Assembly: GCA_001600415.1 (NCBI GenBank)
Contig: BCJX01000004.1
Location: forward strand, 1,821,064-1,885,063
Origin: Pascua guehoae
Lineage: Eukaryota; Basidiomycota; Tremellomycetes; Trichosporonales; Trichosporonaceae
Reading direction: 5' to 3'
DNA: 64,000 nucleotides
Numbering within the stretch: position 1 is the first letter of the stretch; each line of letters opens with the position of its first letter. Shown here in pieces: positions 39,589 to 64,000 of the stretch. A model generated the notes under the pieces. That model worked only from the letters and a program-made list of their open reading frames with translations, made no database searches and was not told the origin of the DNA. A program made the translations under genes and the position numbers.

Positions 39589-42303
39589 ATGCCCTTCGAT
39601 ACCCAACCTCTTCATTCAACGGGTACCTACGTGGGTCGGCAGCCGCCAGCCCCCCCCCCCCCCTCCCCGGTCCCCACCAACAACGTCGCGGCATGCGAGG
39701 GGACATGCAAAATCCACTGTGAGGAAGGTGACCACACCGTGGCATGCTCTGCCATGGTATCGCCATCTAGGTGCGATCGCTGCCGCGACAAGAGGTTCGC
39801 CTCAGCGCAGCTCAGCAACTCGCGCTGGACCGCGGCCTCAGCGGAGTGGAAACGGCGGGATGAAACGAAGGCCGAGGAGGCCGGTGTGGTGGCCAGGCCG
39901 AGCATCACCGTCTCGGAGGTCAGTTCATTGCTTAGCACTGTTCCTCTGGGGAAGATCGCTTACCTCAGGCACAACAACTGTCACCGCCCGAGGAGACGAC
40001 AGTGCCCAAGGAGGCAATAGGACGCAGAGCGTCCAAAGCGCTTCTAGACTCGCTGCTGCGTGGAGATGGGGCTTCTCACGCCCTTCTCCACCACGCCATG
40101 GACGACAATAACCAGAGCACAGTGCTCGACAGCCAGCTGGGGTGGCTTATTCGGAACGCCGAGGATCTTTGGCGTGCCCACCGGGAGACCGTCGACGTCC
40201 ATTCGATGGTCTACATGGACCCGTCGACGCCAGGAAAACCCGCACCATACCCCGGCCACGCACCAGGGCCTGGCATCTGCCGCCTGGCTAGCAATGTCAA
40301 AAACGTTGCCAAGGGTAATGGATTCGGCCTGGTAACTGACGCTATCATCACCGCCATGGCCGCCCGGGCAGCCGGGGCGGACACGGCCTATACGACGCGA
40401 TCACAAGGTCGCTCGATCTTTTCGCCCCCGTCCACTACGCCATGTCGAGGCACAGCGCGCTCGAGCAAGAAGAGAATATTGCCATCATCGAGCCGGCAAG
40501 CGGGGTTGAGCTGTGCGAATAGCGCGCCAAACCCTTCGTCTGTTCCCTCCCGGGGATCGAGTGAGTGACGAGAAATGGCGAGCACTTAGTCGACCTAACC
40601 CGACACAGCATTGGGTATCCCGACGTTGCTCTGGCCGGGGGCCAACACCCACGACCTGCTAAAGCTGGAGACCTTGGCTCTGTACCGAAACATGGAAGAG
40701 TATGAGGGTAGCTCGCCCTGAAACCCAAAAAATCAACGCCGAAGTCCAACTTTGGCAAGCGAACAAGCTCATTGGGCGATACCGCGCCACCACGCTGGAA
40801 TCGTTGCTGACGACGCATCGTGAGTGACTGGTGGAGCGACACACTTGTTGCAGATGTTGACAACTTCAGGGCCCATTGCGCAGCGCATGGTGGACCGGAT
40901 TGCGGCCCTCGGCATGGTGCGCCCGTTGGCGCTTCCCGAGGAGATTCGCTTCACTCCCAGCGTCCGTGATACCGTCCGGTGCAACGGGACAAGCGCTTGG
41001 GAGCTGGGGCTCGCCAACGGCTACACGCCCTGCGCCATGCTGCATGGGTTTGACGAAATGGACAACGGGGCCTTGTTGTCGCAGAAGGCGCGACGGTTCG
41101 AAGTCACGCGAGCGATTGCCAAGGAGCGGGCCCCTGCGGCCGCAGTCTGGTGCCCAGCGTGCCAGGCGGCCTGGGCTACGTCCGACGGAAAGCAGACAAT
41201 GTGCTTCCAGCACACTTTTCAGCAACAGCTGAGCATGGTTTGGAACCCTCCGCCAGAGGAGCCACCCGCCGAGGAGGCGGCGCGCCAAGACCACGAGCGC
41301 AACTATGCGCTCAGGTCCTACCGGACGTTGAAGGAATCGGCCTTCCTTCCCGACGTCCACTGTGGCGTCAAAGCCGAGACTGGCATCGTTTGCCTGGCTC
41401 CGGTCAATTGCGCCACCCACTCCCTCGACCAGAAACGCGCGGTGCAGGGTCGCACTCGGCCGATCACCGTGCTGATTGACGAGCGGGATGCTGGTACGTA
41501 CTGTGATACTCCTACACAGATAAGATTTGTGTTAACGCCTCAGCTTCGGCCAGCAAGCCTCCAGCGCCATCCCGAAAGACCGAGTCGCTCAAGCTGCGCA
41601 ACATTGACGTCCAGTGTGGAGTCATGTCGCAAAACCGCCGGCAGTGCTCGAGCCCTTTGACGTGCCGGCTGCACGCCGAGGCCGAGAAGCGCCGCGTGCC
41701 TGGCCGGTCGTTCCCATACGACGAACTCCTGCGCATGCTGTCCGCCCCGCCCGCGGAATTCGATATGGACTCGCGATGTGCGGTCCTCAACACAAAGGGC
41801 GAAAGGTGCAAGCGGGCCATCTGGGATTGCCAGCTGCACTCAGTGGAGAAGCGCAAGGCCGTAGAGGGACGGTCGGCGCCCTACGAGGCGCTCATCCGCA
41901 AGCGCAGCCGCGTGCGGAACGACAAGGCGCGCGCCGCAAAGAAGCAGAAGAAACTTGACCTTGACACCATGTGCGGGGTGTCCATGGCCGACGGCACGCC
42001 GTGCATGAAGCAGCTTCAAACCTGCCGCTACCCCGGACAATCCGCGGAGGCGAAGCGCAAGGTAGCGGGAAGGTCACAAGCGTCCGACATCTTGATGACC
42101 ATCGTCCAGATCCGCGACCCAATGTTCGGGAAGAACAAGACCCAAAAGGCTCGTACCACCGATGGCAAGGTGAGTGTATATTCCATGTCATTCAACTGAC
42201 GACATAGATCCAGCGCCGGTCGCGCGAGGCGACAAATCGCTATGGACGCAACCCCAATAGGCCGCCATCCCGTACGACGGTTTGTCATTGCAGTCAAGGA
42301 TGA
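39589..42303 (+). CDS. Multi-zinc-module protein with four tandem SCA7-type domains
   Basis: Model: 39589-39918, 39969-40560, 40609-40707, 40745-40819, 40870-41493, 41544-42169, 42208-42303 (813 residues). Four consecutive SCA7-like modules occupy about residues 528-760: VHCGVKAETGIVCLAPVNCA/TH, VQCGVMSQNRRQC..CRLH, RCAVLNTKGERC..CQLH and MCGVSMADGTPC..CRYP, each followed by K-R-x-V-x-G-R. The first has KRAVQGRTRP, identical to SGF73 in this window. The fourth has lost its His. Two further Cys/His patches (RCNG..PCAMLH; WCPACQ..CFQH) precede them. SCA7 domains bind nucleosomes in SAGA (family knowledge), so a chromatin role is inferred. Odd: codons 40391-40560 look coding in another frame (FAPVHYAMSRHSALEQEENI), with a TAG at about 40529, so the middle may be frame-shifted. 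Confidence 0.65.
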
Positions 42304-50264: not shown

Positions 50265-50715
50265 ATGACCGCCTCCCCCCGTTCCTCCTCGGCCCCAGCT
50301 CCACCCAAGCACCACCGATACTGCTGCCCCCATCGCTGCCCACAGCCAGCGACATCCTCAGCGCCCTCGTCGTCATCCCAACCCAAAGTCAAAACCAAGA
50401 GCCCAAAACCCACCACCAAGGCGGCCGCGCCCTCGACCCCGGCAACGCGCCCTCCACCCCCAAAGAAGCGGAAGTGCTCAAAGTACCCTGGGGGTAAGTA
50501 TCGTTCCCAGCCGTGTCTGGACAGTGTGCGGCCGAGATCGATCCGTTGCGCTCCCTCCCACAACCGGACGTGCGGGACAGCATGCAGCAAAGAGCACACC
50601 GCGACGCTCACTCTAACCTCCGAGATGCGAGACGTGTCGCTGACGCACAGACTCGTGCTCGCCCGCGCTCATGGTCGACAAGTGGATATGCCCCTACTGC
50701 AACGTCCCCTTCTAG
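50265..50715 (+). CDS. Small zinc-ribbon family protein, member A
   Basis: Two exons: 50265-50493 and 50651-50715 (97 residues), joined by a 157-nt phase-1 intron (GTAAGT, GCTGACG, CACAG). The N-terminus is Ser/Pro/Lys-rich with RYCCPHRC near residue 20 and a basic PPKKRKCSK before the intron. The last exon reads DSCSPALMVDKWICPYCNVP and F, then stops. The Cys before the intron plus C-x-P-x6-W-x-C-x-x-C could form a four-cysteine zinc site. It shares this module, and the phase and place of the intron, with the minus-strand genes at 52824, 56504, 57456 and 62083. Unknown function; PKKRK suggests nuclear import. Confidence 0.65.
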
Positions 50716-51833
50716 CCCCCCACGTCGTCAGACGCGGCGCTATCAACGATCAAGCGAGAACGTCAGGTGACGGCAACGACTAACGACTGCCGCTCGCGAT
50801 CGCGATAGCACGACCCCCGCCTCTGCCCGATAGAACCTCGGCGATCGGTGATCGGCGATCGGCACCGATCTGCCCTCACCGAACCACACAACGCGTCTGG
50901 CGCCACCCTTGTCCGCCGCGCGGCCGCGGTAACTCGACTCACGTGCCACTCCAGCCGCTTCTAGACTGCGCATGCCGCAACGGCCTCTATCTTGACTAAA
51001 CTTCTGGAAACCACAGCTTAACTAGACTTCCGTGCAATACTATGCGATGCACCTCTTCGTATACCCATCGCTTTGCTATCTCATAGCGATGCATGCAAAG
51101 CAGGGTTTGCCCTCAGGTTTGGCCCGCGGTCTCTCATGTAACCTGGACGAGCTCACGGTCCAGGGGACAGCTGATTTGTATTAATTCACCTGCGTTCCTG
51201 TCCTGTTGGCATCTCATCTTAACACCACAGCATTGGATTGCCCCAACGCATCCTTCCATGGTATCCTACCATGGCTGCCACCTATTGCAAAAATCCGAAG
51301 TGGGGCAGAACAGTCGCTGAGCAGGTCACTGGGGGGATGGATATGTCCTCCGAGGGGGACGCAATTGGCGCGCACGTTAACCGCGTTGGGTGGAATGCAT
51401 GCACGTACGCATTGTGGTTGTGGGCTGCGCTGGGCAATGTGGGGAGGGGGTTTTGTCATTGTTATTGTCTTGTGCGTGTCACATCGCTCACCCTTGGACA
51501 AACACAAACACATTACATTACATTACCCTTTATTCCATTGTTTACGTCTTCCTTCCTTTCTTTCTTCCTTCCTTTCTTTCTTCCTTCCTTTCTTTCTTCC
51601 TTCCTTCCTTCCTTCCTTCGTTGCATCGTTGCATCATTAGCACCTCCCTTCCTTCCTTCCATTCTTTCACTCCCTCCCTCCTTCCTTCCTTGCTCTCCTT
51701 TCTACTTTACTCATCTCTCCTCTTTACACCATCACACAATCACACTATCACAACACCACACCATCACCATCACCCAATCCTCTCTCCCCCCCCCCCCCCC
51801 TCCCATCTTGCACAGCACAGTCCCCTATCAACA
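50716..51833. other. Intergenic with CTTC microsatellite
   Basis: A long CTTC/CTTT tract at about 51545-51690 and a C run near 51787-51800 lead into the next gene. GATCGGCGATCGG repeats are near 50835-50865. No gene supported. Confidence 0.45.
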
Positions 51834-52985
51834 ATGACCACCACACCAAGTGCCGACGTCAAGACCGAGCCCATCTCACCACCGCGCCCCAAGTTAGGGT
51901 CAGCAGACTATGGCTTCATCGGGCGCGGATCACCTTCGAGCAAGCCTCGATTCGAACCCTCCATCCAACCAAAGATCGAGCCAAAGGTCGAGCCAAAAGT
52001 TGAACCAGAGCCCAAGCCCGATCCTACTATTCCTTGCCTCGCTCCGCCGATTCCTCCGCTACCGCCGGCTTCATACCCTCCGCGGACACAGTATACCCCA
52101 GCCCAACAAGCACAGTACCTCCAGGTGCTCAAGAAAGTGTGCGGATACAGCAGCGAGCAGGCACTTCGGCAAGTGTACGGGCACAGTCAGGCGCAGGCTC
52201 CTCAGCAAGTGTACGGCTCCACCATGGCGAACGGCTCCAACCCCCAGGGGCAGGCGTACGCGGCCACCAACGTTCATCAACAGCCGGCGCCCCTTCCTCC
52301 GCAATGGGCCGAGCATACCCAGCCCGCGTACGAGGCCCAGCCCAACGGCCACTATGCCCAGCCCAATGGCCAGTACGCCCAACCCAACGGCCATAACGCC
52401 CAGCCCAACGGCCACTGCCATCCCAACGCCCACTATGCCCAGCACAACCACCATCACATCCAGCCCAACATCCCGCAGATCCCTCTTCACACCGAGAACG
52501 CCCATCACACGCAGTACCACCATCACACCCATCATGATACCCAGCTGGCTCCACCACTCCAGCCCCAACAAGCCGCCCATCACAACACGTCCGGTGACGC
52601 TCCCGTTCGTCGATCGAAGCGTGGCCGCCGGCGCGCAACGCTCTCACCCACCACTTCGTCTTCCACGGCCACCACATGGTCCATCGACCCAGCCGACCTC
52701 GAAATGCTGCCATCACAAGTCCACCCCCAGACCTCTTTCTCCGACTACGAGAACCCCGACCAATACTACGCGCCCCACGCAATGTGGCGGGGCCTCTGCC
52801 CCAAGTTTACCTCTTCCCACGACTCAATCCAGCCCGTGCCCTACATGCGCACCATGGGCATGCTGCAGCTCGGTCCGCTCCCCGACCCCGTTCCCGCCAC
52901 ATCGGACGAAGAGCCATCGCGGCCGCCGACGCCGCAGCGCCGAGAGTGCCACATGGCTTTGGTGACTGGGAACAGTGCGCATTGA
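51834..52985 (+). CDS. Gln/His/Asn-rich hypothetical protein
   Basis: Single exon of 383 residues. The ATG follows the pyrimidine tract. The N-terminus has KTEPISPPRPKLG and tandem IEPKVEPKVEPEPKP. The middle is rich in AQPNGHY/AQPNGQY repeats and His runs (HHTQYHHHTHHD). A basic RRSKRGRRRA patch looks like a nuclear signal. The C-terminus SIDPADLEMLPSQVHPQTSF, then MWRGLCPKF and a PPTPQRREC end, is the most ordered part. I recognise no domain. Its last 162 bp overlap the antisense end of the zinc-ribbon gene at 52824. Confidence 0.6.
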   Translation: MTTTPSADVKTEPISPPRPKLGSADYGFIGRGSPSSKPRFEPSIQPKIEPKVEPKVEPEPKPDPTIPCLAPPIPPLPPASYPPRTQYTPAQQAQYLQVLKKVCGYSSEQALRQVYGHSQAQAPQQVYGSTMANGSNPQGQAYAATNVHQQPAPLPPQWAEHTQPAYEAQPNGHYAQPNGQYAQPNGHNAQPNGHCHPNAHYAQHNHHHIQPNIPQIPLHTENAHHTQYHHHTHHDTQLAPPLQPQQAAHHNTSGDAPVRRSKRGRRRATLSPTTSSSTATTWSIDPADLEMLPSQVHPQTSFSDYENPDQYYAPHAMWRGLCPKFTSSHDSIQPVPYMRTMGMLQLGPLPDPVPATSDEEPSRPPTPQRRECHMALVTGNSAH

Positions 52986-53721
52986 GTACTCCTGCATTGA
53001 GCAGTCCCGCATCGAGTCCTCTGGGGTCATCGCCTGGTCGTCCTGCATCGCCTCGTGCTGCCGCATCCAGTCGTGCTCCTGCGTCCACTCCTGCAGCGTC
53101 GCAGCGTCCGGGACCATGACCCCGTCGTCAAATGCCCGCGACCAGTCGATCGCCAAAAACACGTTCACTGCCGACGGGTAGTCTACCGGCGGATTGCGCA
53201 TGGGGGGTTTGGATGGGTCCACCGGCTCGGGATCGTGGGGGCGCTCGCACATGAGGCACAGCCAGTGCGTGGAATCCTTGGACTCGACGGGAATGCAGAG
53301 GACTGGGGTCAGAACTGTTGGAATAACCGCTGTACAAAAGGGAATCGATTAGCCAAGTGTTGCCCCTTCCAATAAGAACGTGCTTTGTCCAGCAATTTAA
53401 AGACGGTGACAAAGGGGTTTGGTGATGGGACAAGAAGGGGGTTTCGTGACGAGGCAAGAAGGGGCTTTCGTGATGAGGCAAGAATGAGGCTGAGGCTGGG
53501 GCTGAGGCTGAGGCGGAGGCTTTGGAACAATAGTGGACAAGTATCACAGCCGTAGTGAACAATTGCCTGCCTCCTCCTCGCCCCTTGGAATCTTCTGCCT
53601 CGTCGACCTGCCGTTCGACCGTGTCGTTCGACCGCCGTACCGTACTGAACTCACAGGGATCCACGACCCAAGCCCGGGTGCACCAGCGCTCCACGCGCGG
53701 AAAAGGCCCCAAGGGAGCCAT
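52824..53721 (-). CDS. Zinc-ribbon family protein, member B
   Basis: Two exons: 53721-53655 and 53302-52824 (181 residues), with a 352-nt phase-1 intron (GTGAGT; TTCTGACCCCAG). Exon 1 reads MAPLGPFPRVERWCTRAWVV. Exon 2 opens FLCIPVESKDSTHWLCLMCE, giving C-x10-C-x-P-x8-W-x-C-x-x-C across the intron, as in the other four family genes. Unlike them it continues about 140 residues: AVNVFLAIDWSRAFDDGVMV, then EWTQEHDWMRQHEAMQ and acidic/Met-rich repeats. The codon third positions are strongly G/C, supporting coding. The intron carries a 59-bp mobile element next to the branch site and G-rich AAGAAGGGG-type repeats. The extreme C-terminus overlaps the plus-strand gene and may be wrong. Confidence 0.65.
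53316..53374. mobile_element. 59-bp inverted-repeat element, copy 2, with target duplication
   Basis: TGTTGGAAT...TTCCAATA, 55 of 59 identical to 19824-19882. It is flanked on both sides by AGAAC (53311-53315 and 53375-53379), a 5-bp target-site duplication. It lies inside the intron of the zinc-ribbon gene, ending 13 nt before the acceptor. Size is far below a normal LTR; a very short solo terminal element or MITE is possible. Confidence 0.8.
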
Positions 53722-54667
53722 GATGTGTTGCGGTGGATGAGAAGTGAAGATGGGTGTGGGTGAGGATGTGGATGTCCACGTCGATGGAGCAGCAAACGAC
53801 AAAAAGATACATGTAGAGTGCCTCGAGTCTCTGCATGACACCTGCTCGGACATGCTCTGAAGCTGGGCGAGGTCTGTGAGGCAACAGTGCGAAGAGGAGT
53901 GTATCTTGCAGCGTTGCATGCGGCAGTGGCGTGTTAGTACGAGTGGTGCATGTTGCAGCCGAAAAACAAGGGTGGTCACGAGGTAGTGCCACGCACACGG
54001 AGGGCGAGGGCGGTGGTGCACACACTGTTTCTCTCTGAATGCACGTTGGGGGGATTATGGTGCTGCAGTGGCTTATACCCAGTGCCTTTTGAGTGGTCGG
54101 CCTCGGGGCTTGATGACGACGTGCCTCGGCCATCACCGTACGACTGATGTGTTTGCGTTAAATGCGTGACAGCTCCCGATGCCGCCTCGTCTTCTGATTA
54201 AATTAGCCCGTGTCTACGATATATGGAGTGGAAATGGCATTGTTCCGGTGGATGCGTGGCGGTGCCACTTCGTTTTTCGCCATGCATCCACAGGGACTTG
54301 GCGGCGGGAACAAGTTGCCAGTGGGCCGGTGCGTCGGCGTGTCGGCACTCGCCTCACCTCATACACGCGTCCACGCCCCAGAACATCGAGGCAACCTCCC
54401 CTGAATTGGAGAAACACATAAATTGACACACGGCGTGCGAGGTGCGCAGCGCAGCAGCGGCGGGGTCCGGGCCATGCGGGCGGGGCGCAGCGTCCGGGGT
54501 TCCTGACGGGCGGTTTGTGCGCAGCGACAACGGGGGCGAGAAGAAGAAGAGAGGGGAGGATTGTGTCGGGACAAGATGCCATGTCTTCCCGGGTGATCAG
54601 CATCCATTCCTACTGTTTCCCAACTCGTCTTCTCATCATTGTCAACTCTACCGCTCAACCTCTCACC
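53722..54667. other. Divergent intergenic region
   Basis: Promoters of the member B gene (-) and the gene at 54668 (+). Contains the hairpin at 54248-54291. No gene supported. Confidence 0.4.
54248..54291. repeat. Inverted repeat, 13 of 14 bp, 16-nt loop
   Basis: GTGGATGCGTGGCG (54248-54261) pairs with CGCCATGCATCCAC (54278-54291) with one mismatch. Confidence 0.85.
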
Positions 54668-56062
54668 ATGCCAACAACTGACAAGGGCAAGCAGGTAAGC
54701 GTACCCCTCCTCGCCCAGCACCAGCACCACCCTCCGCTCACAGCTGACTGGCCCCAGACCCGGCGCGCAGGTACCCCGCCTCCACCTTCGCCCTCATTGT
54801 CTCTGATCAAGGTGAGTCACCATGTCAAAAAGCCCGTCCTAATCCGCAGCTCCCCACGGGTCGGCTCCGGTGTTCGGCGAGTCCCGCGCCGGGGGACAGG
54901 ATCAAGAAGAATGCCAATACCCTGTCGCTCTACATTCCCAAGACACGTATCGTGCACCACGACCCCGTCGTGCGTGTCATTGCCACCCAGGTCATGTCTG
55001 CGGGGAACGATGTCAACGAGGACGAGACCGACACCGAGCCAGATACAGACACCGACACCCGCGCGCGCGTAAAGTCGCCACCACCCACGCCCCCGCGGCA
55101 CCGCCGCACCCGCAGCCGGCGGATCACGGGCACCGACCTGTCGTCCCTCTCCAACGATGACACGAGCACGAGCACGAGCACGAAGACGCCCCGCAAAGTC
55201 CATCCCCGCGGGCGCGTGCGTCTCACCCCTCCCAAGGCCACTCCCAAGACACCCAGTCCCAAGGCTCCGATTCCAAAGACGCCCACTAGTCCGCCACCGC
55301 CGCCATCACCCCCGGCGCGCATGCTCACGGGGCTCGCGAGCGCCCTCGAAGTGTTCCGCCAAGTCGCCCAGGATTCCGACGACGTCGACGGCGTCGTGCG
55401 CGCGGCGGCCAAGACGGTCGAAATGCTCTTTGGCGCAGACCTCGCGGCGTCCCTCCACCACGCGTTTCGTATGTCCCCCCCGCCCCCCCCCTACCCTAAA
55501 TACACCACAAACAAAGAACCCTGACAGCGTTTCAAGGTGCACATGCGGACCAGGACCGCTCGTTACCGACCCAAGGTCAGATCCGCGACACAGTCGCGCT
55601 CGTCAAGGTCCTCATCCGGTCGACCATCATGGGCGTCGCTGCCGAAATGCTCCCGTCCCCCGCCGACCCCGCCGCCGCCTACGCCGACGCGGCCGGCGGC
55701 GCCGGCGCGCTCGCCGACCTCCCCGACCTGCACGCGAACGTCGGCGCGTGGTGGACGGCGCAGCGGGACAAACTCGTCGCCACTGTTGCCGCACACGAAC
55801 CCACGCTGGGACGGGCGGCGGCGCAGGACTGCCTCTTTCTCGCGGGCTTTGTGTGGGCCGCCGACGAGGTTGTGGGTGAGTACATTCTCAACCAGGTTGC
55901 TACCCAGGTTGGGCCAGGTGAATAATATGGATGCGCTGACATGAAGCCCACATCGAGGGCGTGACGGGCAAAGTGCCCAAGACGCTCGCTGTCAACCAGC
56001 TCAAGGTGGCTATTATCGAGATTGGCGACGGGATCATTACGACCGTGTGGCCGGAAAAGTGA
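54668..56062 (+). CDS. Hypothetical protein, Thr/Pro-rich with helical C-terminal domain
   Basis: Five exons: 54668-54694, 54758-54811, 54850-55468, 55528-55875, 55947-56062 (387 residues), with introns of 63, 38, 59 and 71 nt. N-terminal IKKNANTLSLYIPKTRIVHH and VVRVIATQVM are followed by an acidic Asp/Thr stretch and a Pro/Lys/Thr linker (PPKATPKTPSPKAP). The second half is Ala-rich and helical: GLASALEVFRQVAQDSDDVD, AAKTVEMLFGADLAASLHHA, RDTVALVKVLIRSTIMGVAA, LFLAGFVWAADEVV and IIEIGDGIITTVWPEK. No family recognised. It sits between two zinc-ribbon family genes but lacks the Cys module. Confidence 0.65.
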
Positions 56063-56503
56063 GGCGGTCCCGGACGGTGCAAGTCGAGGCGCTAGCAGCT
56101 CGACGTGCTCACCGCGAGTCAAGCAGCTCGAGCAGCTTGAAGTCGCCACCAGGCACCATTGAGATGGCGATGAAGTGAGAACAGAACTGAATAGAGTGCG
56201 ACAGAGTGCGGGCAGAAGTGGATAGAGTGCGACAAGGGAGAAGTGGATAGAGCTTTGCTGTGTATGTAACACATCGTCTAGAGAGTTGTGATCTATGCAT
56301 ATGAATACAGTACTGGATAACAGGAGGGGGGGGTACAGAGGTGACAGCGGCGCGTCTGTTATGCGGCGGCGGGTAGCGGCGTAGCAGTCTGCGATGAGCT
56401 CTTGCACAAATACCTAGCCACTAGCCACTGCCCACTGCAACTCACCCCACACGGGTCTAGAGCCCAAACACAAGCAGCGCACGCGCAGCAGCGCGCCCCG
56501 GGC
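56063..56503. other. Intergenic, convergent 3' ends
   Basis: 441 bp; GATAGAGTGCGAC repeats at about 56190-56245. No gene seen. Confidence 0.4.
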
Positions 56504-56809
56504 TCAGAGCGAAGTCGGGGACGGAAACACGACGCGGCAATAGTGGCAAACCCACACCCCACGCCGCTTATGATACCGCGGCCAGCAGTGGTCTGCCATC
56601 AGCTCCTACACTAACTAGGGCTCACCGATACCACTCATGTCGGTGCGGGGGCACGGGCGGGGCGTGCTGGGCTCGGGCGGCTGGTCGGCCGCGCACGATG
56701 GGGGCCGGGTGGCGAAGGGCCATAGGTGCCAGAGGGAGAGCATGGGGCGAACGCGGCGGGGGACGTGGGACTGGGACTGGGGACGGGGGACGGGGACGTG
56801 TGATGGCAT
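56504..56809 (-). CDS. Small zinc-ribbon family protein, member C
   Basis: Two exons: 56809-56626 and 56592-56504 (90 residues), separated by a 33-nt phase-1 intron (GTGAGC, GCTGATGGCAG), among the shortest here. Exon 1 is Pro/Arg-rich and ends PSTPRPCPRTDMSGI. Exon 2 reads DHCWPRYHKRRGVWVCHYC then RVVFPSPTSL and stops. The assembled motif is C-x10-C-x-P-x8-W-x-C-x-x-C. Next on the same strand (upstream) lies member D, 646 bp away. The start is the first in-frame ATG; an upstream exon cannot be excluded. Confidence 0.6.
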
Positions 56810-57455
56810 GGACAATGGCGCTTATGTAGGTTGCCTCAGCGTAGACAATCTGAGAATCAGGCGATCATTGTGCAAGAACGCAGCTGTCTGTTGCGCTCAC
56901 GAATGGTGAGTCAGGTTGGGTTGTGGGTTCGCGACTGACTGGGCAGTGATCTGCGCCGGCGTCACGCGCTGGATAGCTAGGATAGTCACGCGTGCGGGTG
57001 CTTGGCACCTCGGCAGTGGTCACGAGCAGAGAGCATCGCTGTTATGACTGAGCCGGCCATATTCCATAGCGAGTTCAGCAGACAGTTCAGCAGAACATAG
57101 ACAACAACCATCGAGGTGGGGCACGTGTTCAGTCCTCCCTTTGCGATCAATCCTGGCATGCGCAATACGCTACGCTGCCACTCGCAAGGCACGCGTGCAC
57201 GCGTCTCACGTCCACTCTGCACGGTACTTGTCCTGCCTCGTTTCCACTCCACCGAGCACGGATGGAGGATGATCCGACGACCACTTATCTGGCCAATCAG
57301 TGTCAGTCGCCGCGCGGGCCCGATATCCGACGAGTGGGACGTGCGGCCTGCAGCCTGCGTGAAACCAGTTAGATGACTGCCCAAGGCCGACGCGCCGACG
57401 CCAGCGCCGACGGCATGGGAGCTGCACGAGCCGCACTTCTATTACGCGGTTGCAT
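56810..57455. other. Intergenic between zinc-ribbon members C and D
   Basis: 646 bp between two minus-strand genes; no coding seen. Confidence 0.4.
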
Positions 57456-58753
57456 CTACTCAAACTCGCCCTGGCAGTGGCAGCAGTACCACCGGTCATT
57501 CTCCTTGTCGTACGTGGGGTAGCAGAATACTGTCGGGTCAGCGAAAAAAAAGAGCAAAAATAGGCTGGCTGGGTGGGCAAGGGCAGGGCAGGGGTGAGGG
57601 TCAAGGCAGGGGTGGTGGTGCAATCAGGAGCTGCGGGGCTCCAGAGGCATGTGGCCATGTGGGCGGCCTGCGGCCTGCGGCAGCACGGCATGTGGAGGGC
57701 ATGGAGGGCATGGAATGGATGCAGGAACAGGGACAGAGGCTGGGCTCGGCCCCGGGCTAGCTCACCAAGACGGTGTTTCGGCTCTTCGGGGCATCGGCGG
57801 CGCTTGGTGGGCGGGTGGCGCATGGCGTGCGAGTTTGGGAGGGGGCCGTGGAGGCGGGTCGGGGAGGGTGTGAGCGAGGATGCGGAGAGGGCGGGCGTGT
57901 GGGGTGCTGGTGGGGATGAAGAGGCGGTGGATGACGCCGAGGCTGAGGCGTGTTGTGTGGTGGGAGGCACGGTGGGGGTGTGGTGGGGAAAGGGGGGCGG
58001 ACGGAGGGTGAGGGGTGGTGCAGGTGGAGAGTGCTGGGCCGACGAGGATCGGCGCACGCTGTCGGGGTAGGGTGTGTACTCGGTGGGGTAGCGTGTGTAC
58101 TCGGGTTCGGGGTAGCAGGGGTGTGTACTCGTACTCGTACTCGTACTTGTACTTGGTCTAGTACTTGTACTTGTGCTTGTGCTTGTGCTTGGTCGTCTAC
58201 TTGGTCGTGTACTTGGTTGTGGCTGTGGGAGGGCCGGGAGTGGCAGCGCCTTGTATGTCTCACGGACGCGACTCGTCTTCTGCGGGGAGCGGCCGTGGCT
58301 GTGGCTTTGGCTGTGGCCGGGGCTGCGCTCGCGACTGTGTCTGTAGCTGTAACTTGGGTGACGGCTACGATTACGACTGTTGTTGTCCCTCTCGATCTGC
58401 TCTAGCTGCTCGATCTGCTCGTGTCGTTCAATCTGCTCGAGGTGCTCGGGCTGCGGGGGCCGGCGGGGAGCACCCGATGCGAATGTGCGGGGTCGCGAGC
58501 TGTCGTGTGCGGGGTCGAGTGGAGGAGGGGGGTTGGGAGTGTGTGCGTTGCGCAGGAAGCTTTCCCGCGCCGGCAGATGCAAGTGGGACCCACGGGCGCG
58601 CGCCCGGGAGATCGGAGAGTGTGTGTGGGGGGCCGAGTGGGGGTGTGGGTGTGGGTGTGGGTGGGAGTAGGAGTGGGAGTGGGGGTGGGGATGAGAGTGT
58701 GGACGGGCCAGGTCGGGGTGTGACGACGACGAGGACGAGGACGACGCCGACAT
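57456..58753 (-). CDS. Zinc-ribbon family protein, member D, low-complexity N-terminus
   Basis: Two exons: 58753-57766 and 57529-57456 (353 residues), with a 236-nt phase-1 intron (GTGAGC; GCTGACCCGACAG). The N-terminus starts MSASSSSSSSS and is rich in HSHPHPHP, then a Glu/Gln patch (PEHLEQIERHEQIEQLEQIE), an Arg/Ser stretch and tandem STSTSTST. Just before the intron is PPTKRRRCPEEPKHRL. The last exon reads VFCYPTYDKENDRWYCCHCQ GEFE then stops. Together C-x10-C-x-P-x8-W-x-C-x-x-C, the family module at the extreme C-terminus. PTKRRRC resembles a nuclear signal. Function unknown. Confidence 0.68.
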
Positions 58754-61700
58754 GGTGCCGAGCCAAGCACGCTACGAGTGTGGGGTTCTATGCCGGCAAA
58801 CAACGCGGGGAGGCGGGGGATGGGTGCGAGACGAGGCGCAGGTGATGGGTTGGGGATTGGACCGAAGGGAGGAGAGGAGAGGTGCATAAGACGATGCAAC
58901 AGATGATGGACGATACCAAATCAGAAGCACATTGCCGCGCGCCACGGGGCACATGGATCAAAGGCCAACGAGCCGACAGTGTAAAAGTGTTACACATCTC
59001 TGATGCCGTTGGCTTTGGCTTTGATCTCTTGCGTCTGCTCACGCCGCTCGCCTTGCCGCAAGCGGGAATGGCCCGATCCATGCACCTCGTACCTGCCGGG
59101 GGTACCGAGTGGCGGGACACGGTCCACACGGCCCATACGGTGGCGATGGTGGCGATGGATGGAGACCCTCGCGCTGTCTGTAGCCTGTTAGCTGTGAGCA
59201 TGCGGCGCCTCTCCACCCTCGTCAACAAGGACCCACGGCCTGTCCTCTCCACCCGAGCCATGGCTGGCCCCTGCACTCTCAACTCTACCCGTGACTTTAG
59301 CCTTAACCGCTGCGGCCGGCGAGTTCTGGGCTCGTACTCGCTCGTGGTTTGGCGCTACATGGACGACATGTATCGATCGGAGCCTTGGTCGCTTCTTTTT
59401 GTTTGGCTCCTTTGTCCTATCCCATGTTTGCATTCCCGCCTCTTTTTTCCTTTGGGAAAAACGGCATCCAGCACGGGCCATGATCTTTCACGTACGCTTT
59501 TTGCTCGTCTATTCAACGCCACAAACGCCTCACGCTGCCCCCCCCCCCCCCGGGTATGCAACTGCCTAGGCAGCGGGGCAGCTGGGCAGAGCAGCTAGGC
59601 AGCTGCAAACCAACAGTGCCGTGAGCCCCGTCGCGCCCGTCGGCCGTGTTTGCCGGCTGCGCCGAGAGATGCGTCCCGACCGCCGATCGCCGAGGAATGC
59701 CCGTCGGCAAAGGCCACGAGGCAGCAGGCGGTTTGAGATAAACACGTGCACGTCCAGGGTGGGTGAAACAGTTTCGGCCCCATCGGCCGCGAGCGCCGGC
59801 AACTGCAAACTCTTCTCACGCTGACCATTTGGTCCAAGACTCCCATTTCGGCCTATACATAAAGCTACCGCCTGGGTACAGCACAGACGCGGCGCACGAG
59901 TCGTCTCGGGGCCCCCAATAACTCAAGAAACACGAGCTCTCAATGCTGTGCTCGTACTTCCTCCGATGCGGGAAACCGAAACCATACCCACATTGAGCAT
60001 GCAGTGCCCACCCAGCACCAGGTGGGCGCTGCCCTACAACTCTGCCGCTACCACTCCGCCTCCACCTCCACCGCCAGCAAGAGGTTCGATGTGGCGTTGT
60101 GGCGTCGTCCACGCGCGGTGCCCCACATGCTGGCCGTGTCCGCCCGAACCGGCGGGTTTGGGCCCCTTGTGCCAGTCGGAAACGGGGCCGAGGGGGGCGC
60201 GGGCATGTTGGCAGTGGGAGCTGGTTACTGATAACCGAACTGTTAGAGGTGATCAAAAGGAACGAGACCGGCGCGGGGGATGTGGAGGGGCGCAGAGAGG
60301 TTGAGCTGCTTGCAAGACCAGAGCCGGCCAGGCTCACCCTGCACTTCTCGCTCCTCTGACACCTCTGCAGCCTGCCAAGATCGAACAAGAGAGGGTGAGA
60401 CCAGCCATGGCTTGGTTGGCCGGTGGCGCAGGGGACGCAGGCGTCCCAGCTGCTGACGAGATGGGTGGTGAGTCGTCTGACACAGAAGTCTCACCTGGGT
60501 GCGAATCCATGTTTCCCAGGTTGTAACCAGTTTCAACCAGGCCTAACCCAGCCAGCCAGCCAGCCAGCCAGCGTGCCTGTTTGTCGCCTGTCGCCTGTCG
60601 CCGAGGCCGAGAACGAGGACGAGGCCAAGAGCGAATCCGCGCTGCTCGGCTTAGCCTGCAGAATTGAAACATTGGCGCGTGTGGCTGTCGTCGTTCTGGA
60701 GCTGACAGTGCCTAGGACCCGCAGGAGCATAAAGCCAAAAGGCAGGCTTGGTCGCATCAGCTGGTGTATGACAGACGGTGGAGAGGGTATTGGCCAGGCG
60801 TCGGCAACGTCGTGAGACTCCCACTTGAGGTCGGATACAAGCGACGCTGCCGGTCGATACGCGTCGATGCTGTCCAGCTAGAGCTCGGGTACAAGCGGCG
60901 CTGCCGGTCGATACCTGTGGATACTGTCCAGCTAGAGCTCAGGCACAAGCGACGCTGCCGGTCGCTACTGTCAACTCAAGGTGGGGTACAACCGACGCTG
61001 GTCGATACTGTCCACAATCCAATGATACGGCAAGGCGTCACTATCATTTGCTTGCTGCAGACTGCGTTTCCTGTGCGCCGTCCTCTCAATGCCGTAGGCG
61101 TACCCCAGCTTCACACGGCGGTCCCACGACTTTCCAGACACACCTGGCTGTGGTCTCGAGATTGGAGTTGGAGACTGAAACATCTGCAGCATCTGACAGC
61201 CCAACAGCCACATGCTTCAGCATGCCGGCGCCTTTCTTGTTCCTCTGCTACACCTCTGTAGCTACAATGCGAAAAGGGATCGTCAGTGGCGCAGGGATAT
61301 CGAGGTGTGTACAGTGCCAGAACGGAAAGAGGTGGCGCAGGGTGAGACTGCGGCTCTGACAAGGTCTGCATGTCTGTAGCAGCTCAACATCGGCGTGCCT
61401 CCGAGGGAGTATGAGTAGCACAGAGGCCAAAAGGACTGGATGTTCCGGGGATTGCACGTCGGGATTCCCGCATGTGTTACTGCACTAAACACCCTTAAAA
61501 TGATCTCTGGACAATCGTCCTGGAGTTCCGTCTGCCTCGGCACTCATGCACATTTGCTGTTCCTTTTTAACACCCTCTGAACTCTTCACCTCTTCTGGCA
61601 TTGCACCCTCAGCGTGACAGAGAGCCACAGAGCCACCCTGCCCCTCACTAGCCTCCTTGGGAGATTCGGTGAGCGACGAACAATGGTAAAGAGTTGCAAG

Positions 61701-62082
61701 ATTACATGGTGGCTACATTAATTACACTGCTCGCGTATCGAGTGAATACGCCACTGCATGTGGCGGTGAAATGTCTGAATATCTGAATGCTCTATTGTTC
61801 TTCTTCGTGTCGATCTCGTGGCCCCGGCGTGCGGCGAGAAAATGTCTGAATGCTCCATTGCTCGTTCTTTGTCGACCTGGTCGGGAGGGGGCGCGCATAG
61901 AGGAGGAGCTGCGGTGGTGACTATCGCTGGCCGTGTCCTGAATGCTCTGTTGTTCTTCCTCCGTGCCGACCTCGGAGGCGGGCGCCGCGAGCGGGAACGG
62001 CGGCATTGTCGGCTGTGGCTGGGCTCGGCTGTCTCCGTCTAGGCGGCAATGGGACTCGAGCTGGTCGAGTTACCCAAGTCGC
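58754..62082. other. 3.3-kb region without supported gene
   Basis: Contains a C run near 59540-59551, the 54-bp minisatellite at 60837-61000 and three imperfect CTGAATGCTC-led repeats at about 61780-61995. Open frames lack splice-supported models. Confidence 0.35.
60837..61000 (-). repeat. 54-bp minisatellite, about three copies
   Basis: ACAAGCGACGCTGCCGGTCGATAC recurs at 60837, 60891 and 60945 (exact 54-bp period), with a partial fourth near 60988. On the minus strand each unit encodes an 18-residue repeat, SSSWTVSTGIDRQRRLYP and SSSWTASTRIDRQRRLYP, without in-frame stop between the first units. Confidence 0.9.
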
Positions 62083-64000
62083 CTAGATGCCGCGGGGGTA
62101 GGACCCGTGGCAATGGCAGCATGCCCACGTGTCGCAGTCGTCGAAATGGATCGGGAGGCACCATTCTGAGTGTCAGCCAGTTCCAAGTCAAAGTCAAATC
62201 CAAGTCCAAAGTCGGAAGTCCAAAGTCGGAAGTCCACAGCCCAAAGTCCACAGTCCAAAGTCCAAATCCAAGTCCAAATCCAAGTCCAAATCCAAATCCA
62301 AGCAGCAAACCCCGCACAGGAACCGGCTCAACCACCACTAAACCAGATGGCACACTCACTAGCCACGGGGCATGGACGCAGGGCGTTGAGCGCCTCCTCC
62401 GACGTCGACGGGAGGCGCGGCGGGCCCATCGGGCCGCGCTTGCGGTACTGGGCGGCCACGTACTCGATGAGCGGGTACGGGTGCTCGGGGCCCGCCATGG
62501 GGATCTCCTCGGTCGGTGGCTGCGGGGGTGGGATGGGGGGGCTGTGGACGCGGCTCGGCACCACCCGCCGCGCAGGAAGTACAGTGACAGGTGCAGGTGC
62601 AGGCGCAGGCGACTGGACGCGGGGGCCCATCGCGAGCCGCCCCGCGTCGTCGTACTTGTACCCCCGCGGGTCCGTCAGACCGTACGAATAGTACACGCTG
62701 CGCTCCCGGGAGTTGGGGCGGTGGACGGCGCGTGTGGAATCTCCACCCATACCCACACCCCCCGCAGCGGTAGCGGTAACACCACCAACACCCCACCCCA
62801 CACCACCAGCACCAGCAACGGCGCCACCAACACCCCACCCCACACCACCAGCACCAGCAACGGCGCCGCCTCCAACAACCGCACCCTCGACGGCACCGCC
62901 ACCAACCCTACCGCCAACACGCGCACCAACCGCACCAACCACACCGCCACCACCCGCGCCAACAGCAACAGCCACAACACCTGCGCGCGCACCATCACCC
63001 CACGTCCCCGCACCCGAGCCCGCGCCCCCGGCGTGGCCACGCCCAAGCCCCTCCCGGCCCCGCACATAGCACCACCAGTACGCGGCCCGGGCGTCGTGCC
63101 CCCTGCCCACCATCCAGGTGTACAGGTGCGCGGGGTCGTAGATGGGCGGCGGGGGCGGGGGCGCAAACTCGAGCCGTTGGGGGGCGAAGAAGGCGGGCTG
63201 GTGGGGGTGGGGTTGGGGCGCGGGGGCGTGAGACGGGCCGGACCAGGGGACGGCGTGGTGCGTATAAGTCTGGGCCGGGAGGCGAGCCTGGGCCGGACCG
63301 GCGTGGTGCGCCTGGGCGGGGAGGCCAGCCTGGGACGGCCCGGCATGGTGGTGGCTCCCTTGGCCTTGCCCGGCGTGGCCTTGGACGTACCCCCCGCCGT
63401 GGGGGTAGCCCGCATACCCTTGCCACCCCGCCTGAGCGTACCCGTGGTCGTGGCCGTGGCCAGCGTGACCACGCCCGTACGAGGGGTCCTGGTACACCCC
63501 GTTCTGGCATCAGCGACCGTCTGTAGTGTGCAACTCACGTTCTGGTGGCCGTGCACGCCGTGCGCAAAGCCCTGCTCAGCGTCGGGCGCGGGGGCGGGCG
63601 ACGGGCGGCGCAGAGAAGCGGGGGGAGTGTGGGGGTTCAGCCACGTGATGTCCGTCGAGACCGAGGACGTGCTGCTGGGCGAGGGGGTGGGCGAGCGCGC
63701 GGGGTGGTCGTGGTCGTGGCCGTTGTCGTAGCCGTGGCCGTAGGCGTGGCCGTGGCCGTAGGCATGGTGGTGGCCGTGGCCGTGGCCGTAGGCGTGGTGG
63801 TGGTCGTGGCCGTGGCCGTAGCCGTCGCCGTCGCCGTCGCCGTCGCCTTCGCCATAGTCGTCGCCATCGCTCTCGCCCTCGCCGTCGCCGTCGCTGAAGT
63901 CGTCGCCGCCGCCGTGTCCGTTGTCGTGACCGTGGCCGTCCTCATGGCCAATCATACCGTCCTGCCACCCGTTCGACGCGTCAGGTGACTCCCCATGGGG
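62083..64000 (-). CDS. Zinc-ribbon family protein, member E, His/Gly-rich, 5' end outside window
   Basis: Visible exons: 64000-63539 (open at the edge), 63503-62360, 62165-62083; at least 562 residues. Intron one is 35 nt; intron two is 194 nt, phase 1. The N-terminal part has DASNGWQDGMIGHEDGHGHD, Asp/Gly runs and HGHDHHHAYGHGH repeats; the middle has Ala/Gly/Val repeats encoded by a 42-bp tandem unit at 62782-62865, then VYYSYGLTDPRGYKYDDAGR. Before the last intron is EEALNALRPCPVA. The last exon reads KWCLPIHFDDCDTWACCHCH then GSYPRGI and stops, giving C-x5-C-x-P-x8-W-x-C-x-x-C. His-rich runs may bind metal (inference). The Ala/Gly/Val block could hide an unrecognised intron. Confidence 0.65.
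62180..62310. repeat. TCCAAA/TCCAAG hexanucleotide array in intron
   Basis: About 20 degenerate hexamer units fill most of the last intron of member E. Confidence 0.85.

What the first reader, a model, noticed from the sequence alone, without database searches (positions are those of the whole stretch)
50265..62165. Undescribed-looking gene family sharing a split C4 zinc-ribbon module and a conserved phase-1 intron
Seen directly: five genes (50265+, 52824-, 56504-, 57456-, 62083-) carry a Cys preceded by basic or aromatic residues (KRKCS, ERWCT, RPCPR, RRRCP, RPCPV), then 0-8 residues later a phase-1 intron, then an exon starting x-x-C-x-P. The rest is CSPALMVDKWICPYC, CIPVESKDSTHWLCLMC, CWPRYHKRRGVWVCHYC, CYPTYDKENDRWYCCHC and CLPIHFDDCDTWACCHC. 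In all five the split codon plus one residue precedes the Cys, and Pro sits at +2; in four, W is exactly 11 residues after the Cys. In four the module ends the protein. The rest of each protein is dissimilar low complexity. Inference: exon-level homology, by duplication or exon shuffling, of a small zinc-binding tail. I cannot name the family; I infer it is lineage-specific and clustered.
Basis: partly seen in the sequence, partly recalled or inferred. Interest (0 to 1): 0.92.

Follow-up and report, generated by a model that had tools for sequence, protein, structure and literature searches.

The report
Clustered fungal intron-split zinc-module genes
A fungal chromosome carries a cluster of small, fast-changing genes that share little except a probable four-cysteine zinc-binding tail interrupted by an intron at one fixed point, and a second cluster in the same genome shows such tails multiplying by copying of an exon.

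Summary
In the window, C-x-P-x(4-14)-W-x-C-x-x-C occurs exactly five times, each with an AG ending 5 nt before the Cys codon (5 found, 0.003 expected). Three more copies adjoin the window end: eight in 20 kb, no other AG-positioned match to that pattern in 264 kb. Probable members lie on C20 (one gene) and C6 (three genes, five modules). The 13 introns modelled are GT-AG, phase 1, one codon plus two bases before the second Cys, with CTRAY 10-17 nt from the 3' end. Homology spans both exons: Arg is at -2 of the first Cys in 8 of 8 C4/C20 genes with an exon 1. One C6 gene has three tandem modules, two exon-intron units aligning far above shuffles. No Pfam cut-off was seen reached; protein searches found no relative but were insensitive. 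Sequence-only recovery fails for B, G, H, C20 and most C6 modules. A canonical zinc ribbon is not shown: the first Cys pair is spaced 5-12. Zinc binding, expression and function are inferred; lineage restriction could not be tested.

The parts
50265..50493 (+). Gene A exon 1 (Pro/Ser-rich N-terminus, ends ...PPKKRKCSKYPG, first Cys)
50494..50650 (+). Gene A phase-1 intron, 157 nt, GTAAGT...CTGACGCACAG
50651..50715 (+). Gene A exon 2: SCSPALMVDKWICPYCNVPF*
52824..53302 (-). Gene B exon 2: LCIPVESKDSTHWLCLMCERPH... followed by a non-module extension to the stop (further introns not excluded)
53303..53654 (-). Gene B phase-1 intron, 352 nt
53655..53721 (-). Gene B exon 1: MAPLGPFPRVERWCTRAWVVDP
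56504..56592 (-). Gene C exon 2: HCWPRYHKRRGVWVCHYCRVVFPSPTSL*
56593..56625 (-). Gene C phase-1 intron, only 33 nt (weakest splice model)
56626..56809 (-). Gene C exon 1, ends RPCPRTDMSGI
57456..57529 (-). Gene D exon 2: FCYPTYDKENDRWYCCHCQGEFE*
57530..57765 (-). Gene D phase-1 intron, 236 nt
57766..58753 (-). Gene D exon 1: long Ser/Pro/His/Arg-rich low-complexity region ending PPTKRRRCPEEPKHRL
62083..62165 (-). Gene E last exon: WCLPIHFDDCDTWACCHCHGSYPRGI*
62166..62359 (-). Gene E phase-1 intron, 194 nt
62360..64000 (-). Gene E upstream exons: His/Gly/Asp-rich low complexity ending ALRPCPVA; a likely upstream intron at about 63504-63538 and a likely start (MSHTNQPVQ...) past the window end, near window-equivalent 64265 (counted by hand)
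51834..52974 (+). Possible further, truncated member: Pro/Gln-rich protein ending PPTPQRREC-x8 at a phase-1 GTGCGC site (same R-x-C-x8-donor signature), but no second module exon found downstream

Best explanation
A fungal family of protein-coding genes built around one module of about 25-40 residues, [R]-x-C1-x(5-12)-C2-x-[P]-x(6-13)-W-x-C3-x2-C4-x3-[F/Y] (R, P and the aromatic are not in every member). The four cysteines most likely hold one structural zinc ion: C3/C4 sit in a rubredoxin-type knuckle, and C1/C2 are brought together across a 5-12 residue loop. The module is usually the C-terminus of its protein; in several C4 genes the N-terminal part looks disordered and is basic just before C1 (KKRKC, KRRRC), which suggests a nuclear or RNA-associated docking or nucleic-acid-binding tail. 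The family grew by local gene duplication on C4 (eight copies in 20 kb). In one C6 gene it grew by duplication of a phase 1-1 exon. Because the intron falls inside the metal site, that exon holds C2-C3-C4 of one module and C1 of the next, so each added exon adds one module assembled across an exon junction. Shown: modules, splice signals, phase, spacing, clustering, and the repeated exon-intron units of the C6 gene. Inferred: zinc binding, expression, nuclear role.
For: Five of five window modules with correctly placed AG versus 0.003 expected. Three further AG-positioned copies adjoin the window; two other C-x-P matches in 264 kb lack the AG. With the looser pattern C-x(8-18)-W-x-C-x2-C, 9 of 29 hits on C4 (8 members plus one low-complexity match at 2312) and 5 of 5 hits on C6 have AG at that one offset; each of the other 11 offsets tested has 0-4 on C4 and 0-2 on C6. 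Thirteen of 13 modelled introns are phase 1 at the same codon, with CTRAY near the end. C1-C2 spacing is exactly 10 in six modules and exactly 12 in four. R at -2 of C1 in 8 of 8 C4/C20 genes that have an exon 1. In all 8 leave-one-out profiles of C4+C20 modules, built without C6 sequence, one C6 module (1046451-) is the best non-member among 8976 ORFs, E 0.002-0.051. Modules C and F find each other as the only other match in the whole genome (E 0.0095 and 0.0128). Two C6 exon-intron units align with score 144 against a maximum of 79.5 in 300 shuffles. The C3/C4 half aligns weakly with Tax1-binding protein 1 (E 0.035) and rubredoxin (E 0.077).
Against: Leave-one-out recovery fails for B (E 3.2), C20 (20) and G (95). 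H, left out of that profile, scores 1.0 bit (E 300); of the other C6 modules 1048413 has E 1.7, 1047541 18, 1046631 50, and 1046806 no match. These rest on spacing and splice position. Donors were chosen by me to fit the frame set by the acceptor; an automatic C-x8-donor scan gave 7 rows, 4 of them my models and 3 alternatives for G, C6a and M1 that I did not adopt. Donors of C6b, M1 and M3 (GTGAGA, GTGCGT, GTAGGT) are off the usual form. H has one candidate exon 1, unconvincing. No transcript evidence, other species or structure. C1/C2 are not a normal knuckle. Percent identity of the C6 units (117/174) does not by itself exceed gapped shuffles (mean 62%, maximum 71%); only the score does. 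The nuclear role rests on composition alone.
Confidence: 0.57

Rival explanations
1. Mobile second exon: the C2-C3-C4 exon was copied or captured into unrelated genes (exon shuffling), so the host genes are not otherwise related.
For: The eight C4 gene regions share no same-strand blastn match at E 0.01; phase-1 boundaries suit shuffling; repeated exon-intron units occur in the C6 gene.
Against: Exon 1 ends are also conserved: R-x-C1 in 8 of 8 C4/C20 genes with an exon 1, and C1-C2 spacing fixed at 10 or 12 in 10 of 13 modules. A captured exon 2 would need to land next to a ready C1 each time.
Confidence: 0.2
2. A diverged remnant of a known zinc domain (PHD C-terminal half, rubredoxin/zinc ribbon, RanBP2 or DUF4187 type), i.e. 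an ordinary family too diverged for profile search.
For: C-x-P-...-W-x-C-x2-C recalls the end of PHD fingers (recalled, not from a call); weak hits, one member each, to DUF4187 (E 4e-4), PriA, LapB and RanBP zinc ribbons; weak Tax1-binding protein 1 and rubredoxin alignments.
Against: Each Pfam hit is to one member only, and where a cut-off is printed it is not reached; PHD was not listed at E up to 1; C1-C2 spacing fits none of them as recalled.
Confidence: 0.17
3. Not functional genes: chance or decaying sequences in a gene-poor tract.
For: Low-complexity exon 1s; no transcript data; H and 51834+ look incomplete; one intron only 33 nt.
Against: Chance rate 0.003 per window; open frames, splice signals and CTRAY in 13 of 13 modelled introns; similar structure on two other contigs.
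Confidence: 0.06

Closest known systems
Rubredoxin-type zinc knuckle (W-x-C-x2-C-x3-Y)
   Same: Second half of the module aligns weakly with rubredoxin W-V-C-x-x-C-x3-Y (E 0.077)
   Different: Rubredoxin has two CxxC knuckles (both seen in the alignment); here the first pair is spaced 5-12 and its second Cys lies 10-17 residues before C3
PHD finger, C-terminal half (C-x-P...W-x-C-x2-C)
   Same: Order and spacing of C, P, W, C, C (resemblance recalled)
   Different: No C4HC3 set and no conserved His; no Pfam PHD match at E up to 1
DUF4187 (PF13821)
   Same: One member (F) has a sub-threshold match over the CxxC region (E 0.0015, one member at 4e-4)
   Different: Score 18.7 against a cut-off of 29; 1 of 11 members matches
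RanBP2-type zinc finger (PF00641)
   Same: W-x-C-x2-C element; 1 of 11 members at E 0.44
   Different: In RanBP2 fingers (recalled) W-x-C-x2-C comes first and the second pair follows; here it is last

Membership tests
Canonical zinc ribbon / rubredoxin-like | Two CxxC-type knuckles (recalled definition) | tested here: not met
   C1-C2 spacing is 5, 7, 8, 10 or 12 in 13 modules; only C3-C4 is CxxC
Canonical zinc ribbon / rubredoxin-like | Fold with two beta-hairpin knuckles around Zn | not tested
Any Pfam-A zinc family | Score above the curated cut-off | tested here: not met
   5 proteins (D and E as C-terminal parts), 4 proteins and 11 alignment members scanned; no printed match reaches its cut-off; one search prints cut-offs for its first member only, best E over members 4e-4
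PHD finger | C4-H-C3 ligand set | tested here: not met
   Four conserved Cys, no conserved His (alignments)
RanBP2-type finger | W-x-C-x(2-4)-C before the second Cys pair (recalled definition) | tested here: not met
   W-x-C-x2-C is last in the 11 aligned rows
This new family (split C4 module) | Phase-1 intron one codon plus 2 nt before C2 | tested here: met
   13 of 13 modelled introns; H has the acceptor but no convincing exon 1
This new family (split C4 module) | Members recoverable by sequence profile alone | tested here: inconclusive
   Leave-one-out E: D 1.6e-4, C 0.0026, F 0.0084, A 0.019, E 0.087; B, C20, G and H not recovered; 1 of 5 C6 modules recovered
This new family (split C4 module) | Restricted to one lineage | not testable with these tools
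   No fungal relatives held; searches found none but need shared 5-residue words
Transposon-borne gene | Terminal repeats or near-identical copies | tested here: inconclusive
   No same-strand blastn match between the eight C4 gene regions; in 49.5-63.9 kb one unrelated inverted repeat, 29 nt, 79%; the rest of the cluster was not scanned for repeats

The most novel reading that the evidence does not exclude
A previously undescribed fungal zinc module that multiplies by duplication of exons lying out of register with the domain: each phase 1-1 exon carries three ligands of one zinc site and the first ligand of the next, so every added exon adds one complete zinc site formed across a splice junction, alongside rapid local gene turnover in dedicated clusters.
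Probability: 0.38. Interest if true: 0.6.

Novelty: new variant of a known kind. Interest (0 to 1): 0.45.

Why it matters
If it holds in other species, it gives a well-marked case (a fixed intron inside a metal site) for following how an orphan gene family grows, loses detectable similarity outside a core of about 35 residues, and passes from one-module to multi-module proteins by exon duplication. Such families are easily missed because their sequences diverge beyond search sensitivity; here the splice position is what reveals them.

Tried and rejected
Chance: rejected by Markov re-sampling and by the AG-offset control. Known family: Pfam, NCBIfam and PDB sequence searches gave only weak matches. 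Protein relatives: no candidate for F or the C6 three-module protein; 184 candidates for alignment A4, none with E up to 1; these searches need shared exact words, so they say little about distant relatives. Whole-genome single-protein searches: E, the three-module protein, C6a, D, M3 and G found only their own places; C and F found each other. The profile contained the eight C4 modules, so its high scores for them are circular; one search replaces it. Transposon origin: no sign, only partly tested.

Whole-genome count: WxCxxCxxx[FY]P gives 18 hits against 0 for the reversed pattern; 4 are C4 members, 1 is C20, and the other 13 were not convincing. WxCxxCxxx[FY] gives 109 against 105 in the control, so most are chance. 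Of the 109, 100 were listed and 74 read; 26 were set aside: 8 in the C4 cluster area, 11 already seen, 7 with a stop (5 dropped by hand, 2 by script). Of the 74, nine have an AG at the right offset before some Cys within 20 codons; two of these (both C6) are convincing and seven are not. Members with C2 farther away, or without the aromatic, would be missed, so the family size is a lower bound. The search for related loci with A4 could not run, as no stretch is conserved enough. Papers: seven searches listed no title or abstract start that describes such a family (listings only); passages were read in PMC7072944 and PMC4999995, no whole text.

Full report
WHAT WAS CHECKED. The window is G000:C4:1821064-1885063 of a 33.6 Mb, 28-contig genome. 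Reading the sequence and scanning six frames confirms the five modules. They are the only five matches to C-x-P-x(4-14)-W-x-C-x-x-C in 64 kb, and each has AG ending 5 nt before the Cys codon. Locally fitted Markov re-sampling gives 0.003 such sites per window with the AG rule and 0.067 without.

THE CLUSTER IS LARGER. Fetching 100 kb on each side and scanning 264 kb (77 bases of which read N) finds three more AG-positioned copies on the minus strand at window-equivalent 67305 (F), 69536 (G) and 70186 (H). Two other C-x-P matches in the 264 kb lack the AG. The cluster of eight spans about 50.6-70.2 kb. By eye, with no family search run on them, flanking ORFs look like an ataxin-7/Sgf73-type protein (41.5 kb), a ferric reductase (72.6-74.7 kb) and a phospholipid methyltransferase (92.4 kb), so the cluster seems to lie in ordinary chromosome. 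It is not at a contig end (contig 2,444,010 bases).

OTHER CONTIGS. The short pattern WxCxxCxxx[FY]P has 18 genome matches and none for the reversed pattern. Reading the flanks shows four of the C4 copies, one new gene on C20 (282176-), RPCSEGHRSDY[L]YCSAVYNQKLGIWCCGQCSQGFP, again with a phase-1 intron, and 13 unconvincing matches. The looser WxCxxCxxx[FY] is not enriched overall (109 against 105), but of 74 hits read two neighbouring ones on C6 fit. Nineteen kb around them hold five modules, all minus strand, all with AG at the right offset: two one-module genes (1048401-, 1047532-) and one gene with three tandem modules (1046794-, 1046616-, 1046436-).

ANATOMY. For 13 modules (A-G, C20, C6a, C6b, M1-M3) an exon 1 was modelled. 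All 13 introns are GT-AG, phase 1, one codon plus two bases before C2, 33-352 nt long, with CTRAY starting 10-17 nt before the 3' end. The donors were picked to fit the frame set by the acceptor; C6b, M1 and M3 use unusual ones. C1-C2 spacing is 10 in B, C, D, F, G and C20; 12 in C6a, C6b, M2 and M3; 7 in A, 5 in E, 8 in M1. R is at -2 of C1 in the eight C4/C20 genes with an exon 1; the five C6 modules lack it. H has a good acceptor and CTRAY but no convincing exon 1. An automatic scan for C-x8-donor followed by a module returned 7 rows: four are the models of B, D, F and G, three are alternatives for G, C6a and M1 that I did not adopt. The gene at 51834-52974 ends in the same R-x-C-x8-phase-1-donor signature, but none of six AG-N5-TGY sites downstream leads to a W-x-C-x2-C module; it may be a truncated copy.

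HOMOLOGY STRENGTH. Leave-one-out profiles over 8976 ORFs recover D (E 1.6e-4), C (0.0026), F (0.0084), A (0.019) and, marginally, E (0.087); B (3.2), C20 (20) and G (95) are not recovered by sequence alone. The same profiles, built without C6 sequence, rank one C6 module (1046451-) as best non-member in 8 of 8 runs (E 0.002-0.051). With the full profile H (E 300) and four of five C6 modules (1.7, 18, 50, none) are not recovered. Whole-genome searches with C and F find each other and nothing else; searches with D, E, G and M3 exons find only themselves. Between the eight C4 gene regions there is no same-strand blastn match at E 0.01. In the three-module C6 gene two successive exon-intron units align with 117/174 identities; that percentage alone is not above gapped shuffles (mean 62%, maximum 71%), but the alignment score, 144, exceeds the maximum of 300 shuffles, 79.5. 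I read this as a tandem exon duplication. The middle exons are phase 1-1 and carry C2-C3-C4 plus the C1 of the next module.

WHAT IT IS. The four Cys, the W before C3 and the common aromatic at C4+4 look like one structural metal site. The second half aligns weakly with Tax1-binding protein 1 and rubredoxin knuckles (E 0.035 and 0.077). The first pair does not fit a usual knuckle (consensus CPXCG, in a passage on treble clefs in PMC4999995). Pfam, NCBIfam and PDB sequence searches give only weak hits. N-terminal parts are Pro-rich in A, C, D and F, with much Ser, His, Lys or Arg; G and the C6 genes are short and not so; B is not low complexity. The basic run before C1 in A (PKKRKC) and D (TKRRRC) resembles a nuclear localisation signal (recalled). 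I therefore favour, at modest confidence, a nuclear or RNA-associated protein whose C-terminal zinc module docks to protein or nucleic acid. Only the modules, splice signals, clustering and repeated exon-intron units are shown.

LIMITS. Relatives in other fungi could not be examined. No transcript or structural evidence was available.

Noticed in passing
window 51834-52974 (+): Pro/Gln-rich protein with VKTEP, PKIEP and PKVEP stretches (look like sumoylation motifs, recalled) and a C-terminus carrying the family's R-x-C-x8-donor signature but no second module exon.
   Followed up: partly
window 52824-52985: The 3' ends of the + strand gene at 51834 and the minus-strand gene B overlap by about 160 bases on opposite strands.
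   Followed up: no
window-equivalent 80515-82847 (minus strand, in loci L004-L013): Two more long ORFs of balanced composition near the cluster that I could not name by eye; no family search run.
   Followed up: no
L116, C6:1046352-1046930 (-): Gene with three tandem C4 modules separated by phase-1 introns; two C1 regions, PWRCxG....G.NRL, are near repeats.
   Followed up: yes
window 56593-56625 (-): Predicted intron of only 33 nt in gene C, unusually short for a fungal intron (general knowledge).
   Followed up: no
window 41507-42196 (+): ORF resembling an ataxin-7/Sgf73 SAGA subunit with what look like three SCA7-like Cys/His repeats, by eye; no family search run.
   Followed up: no
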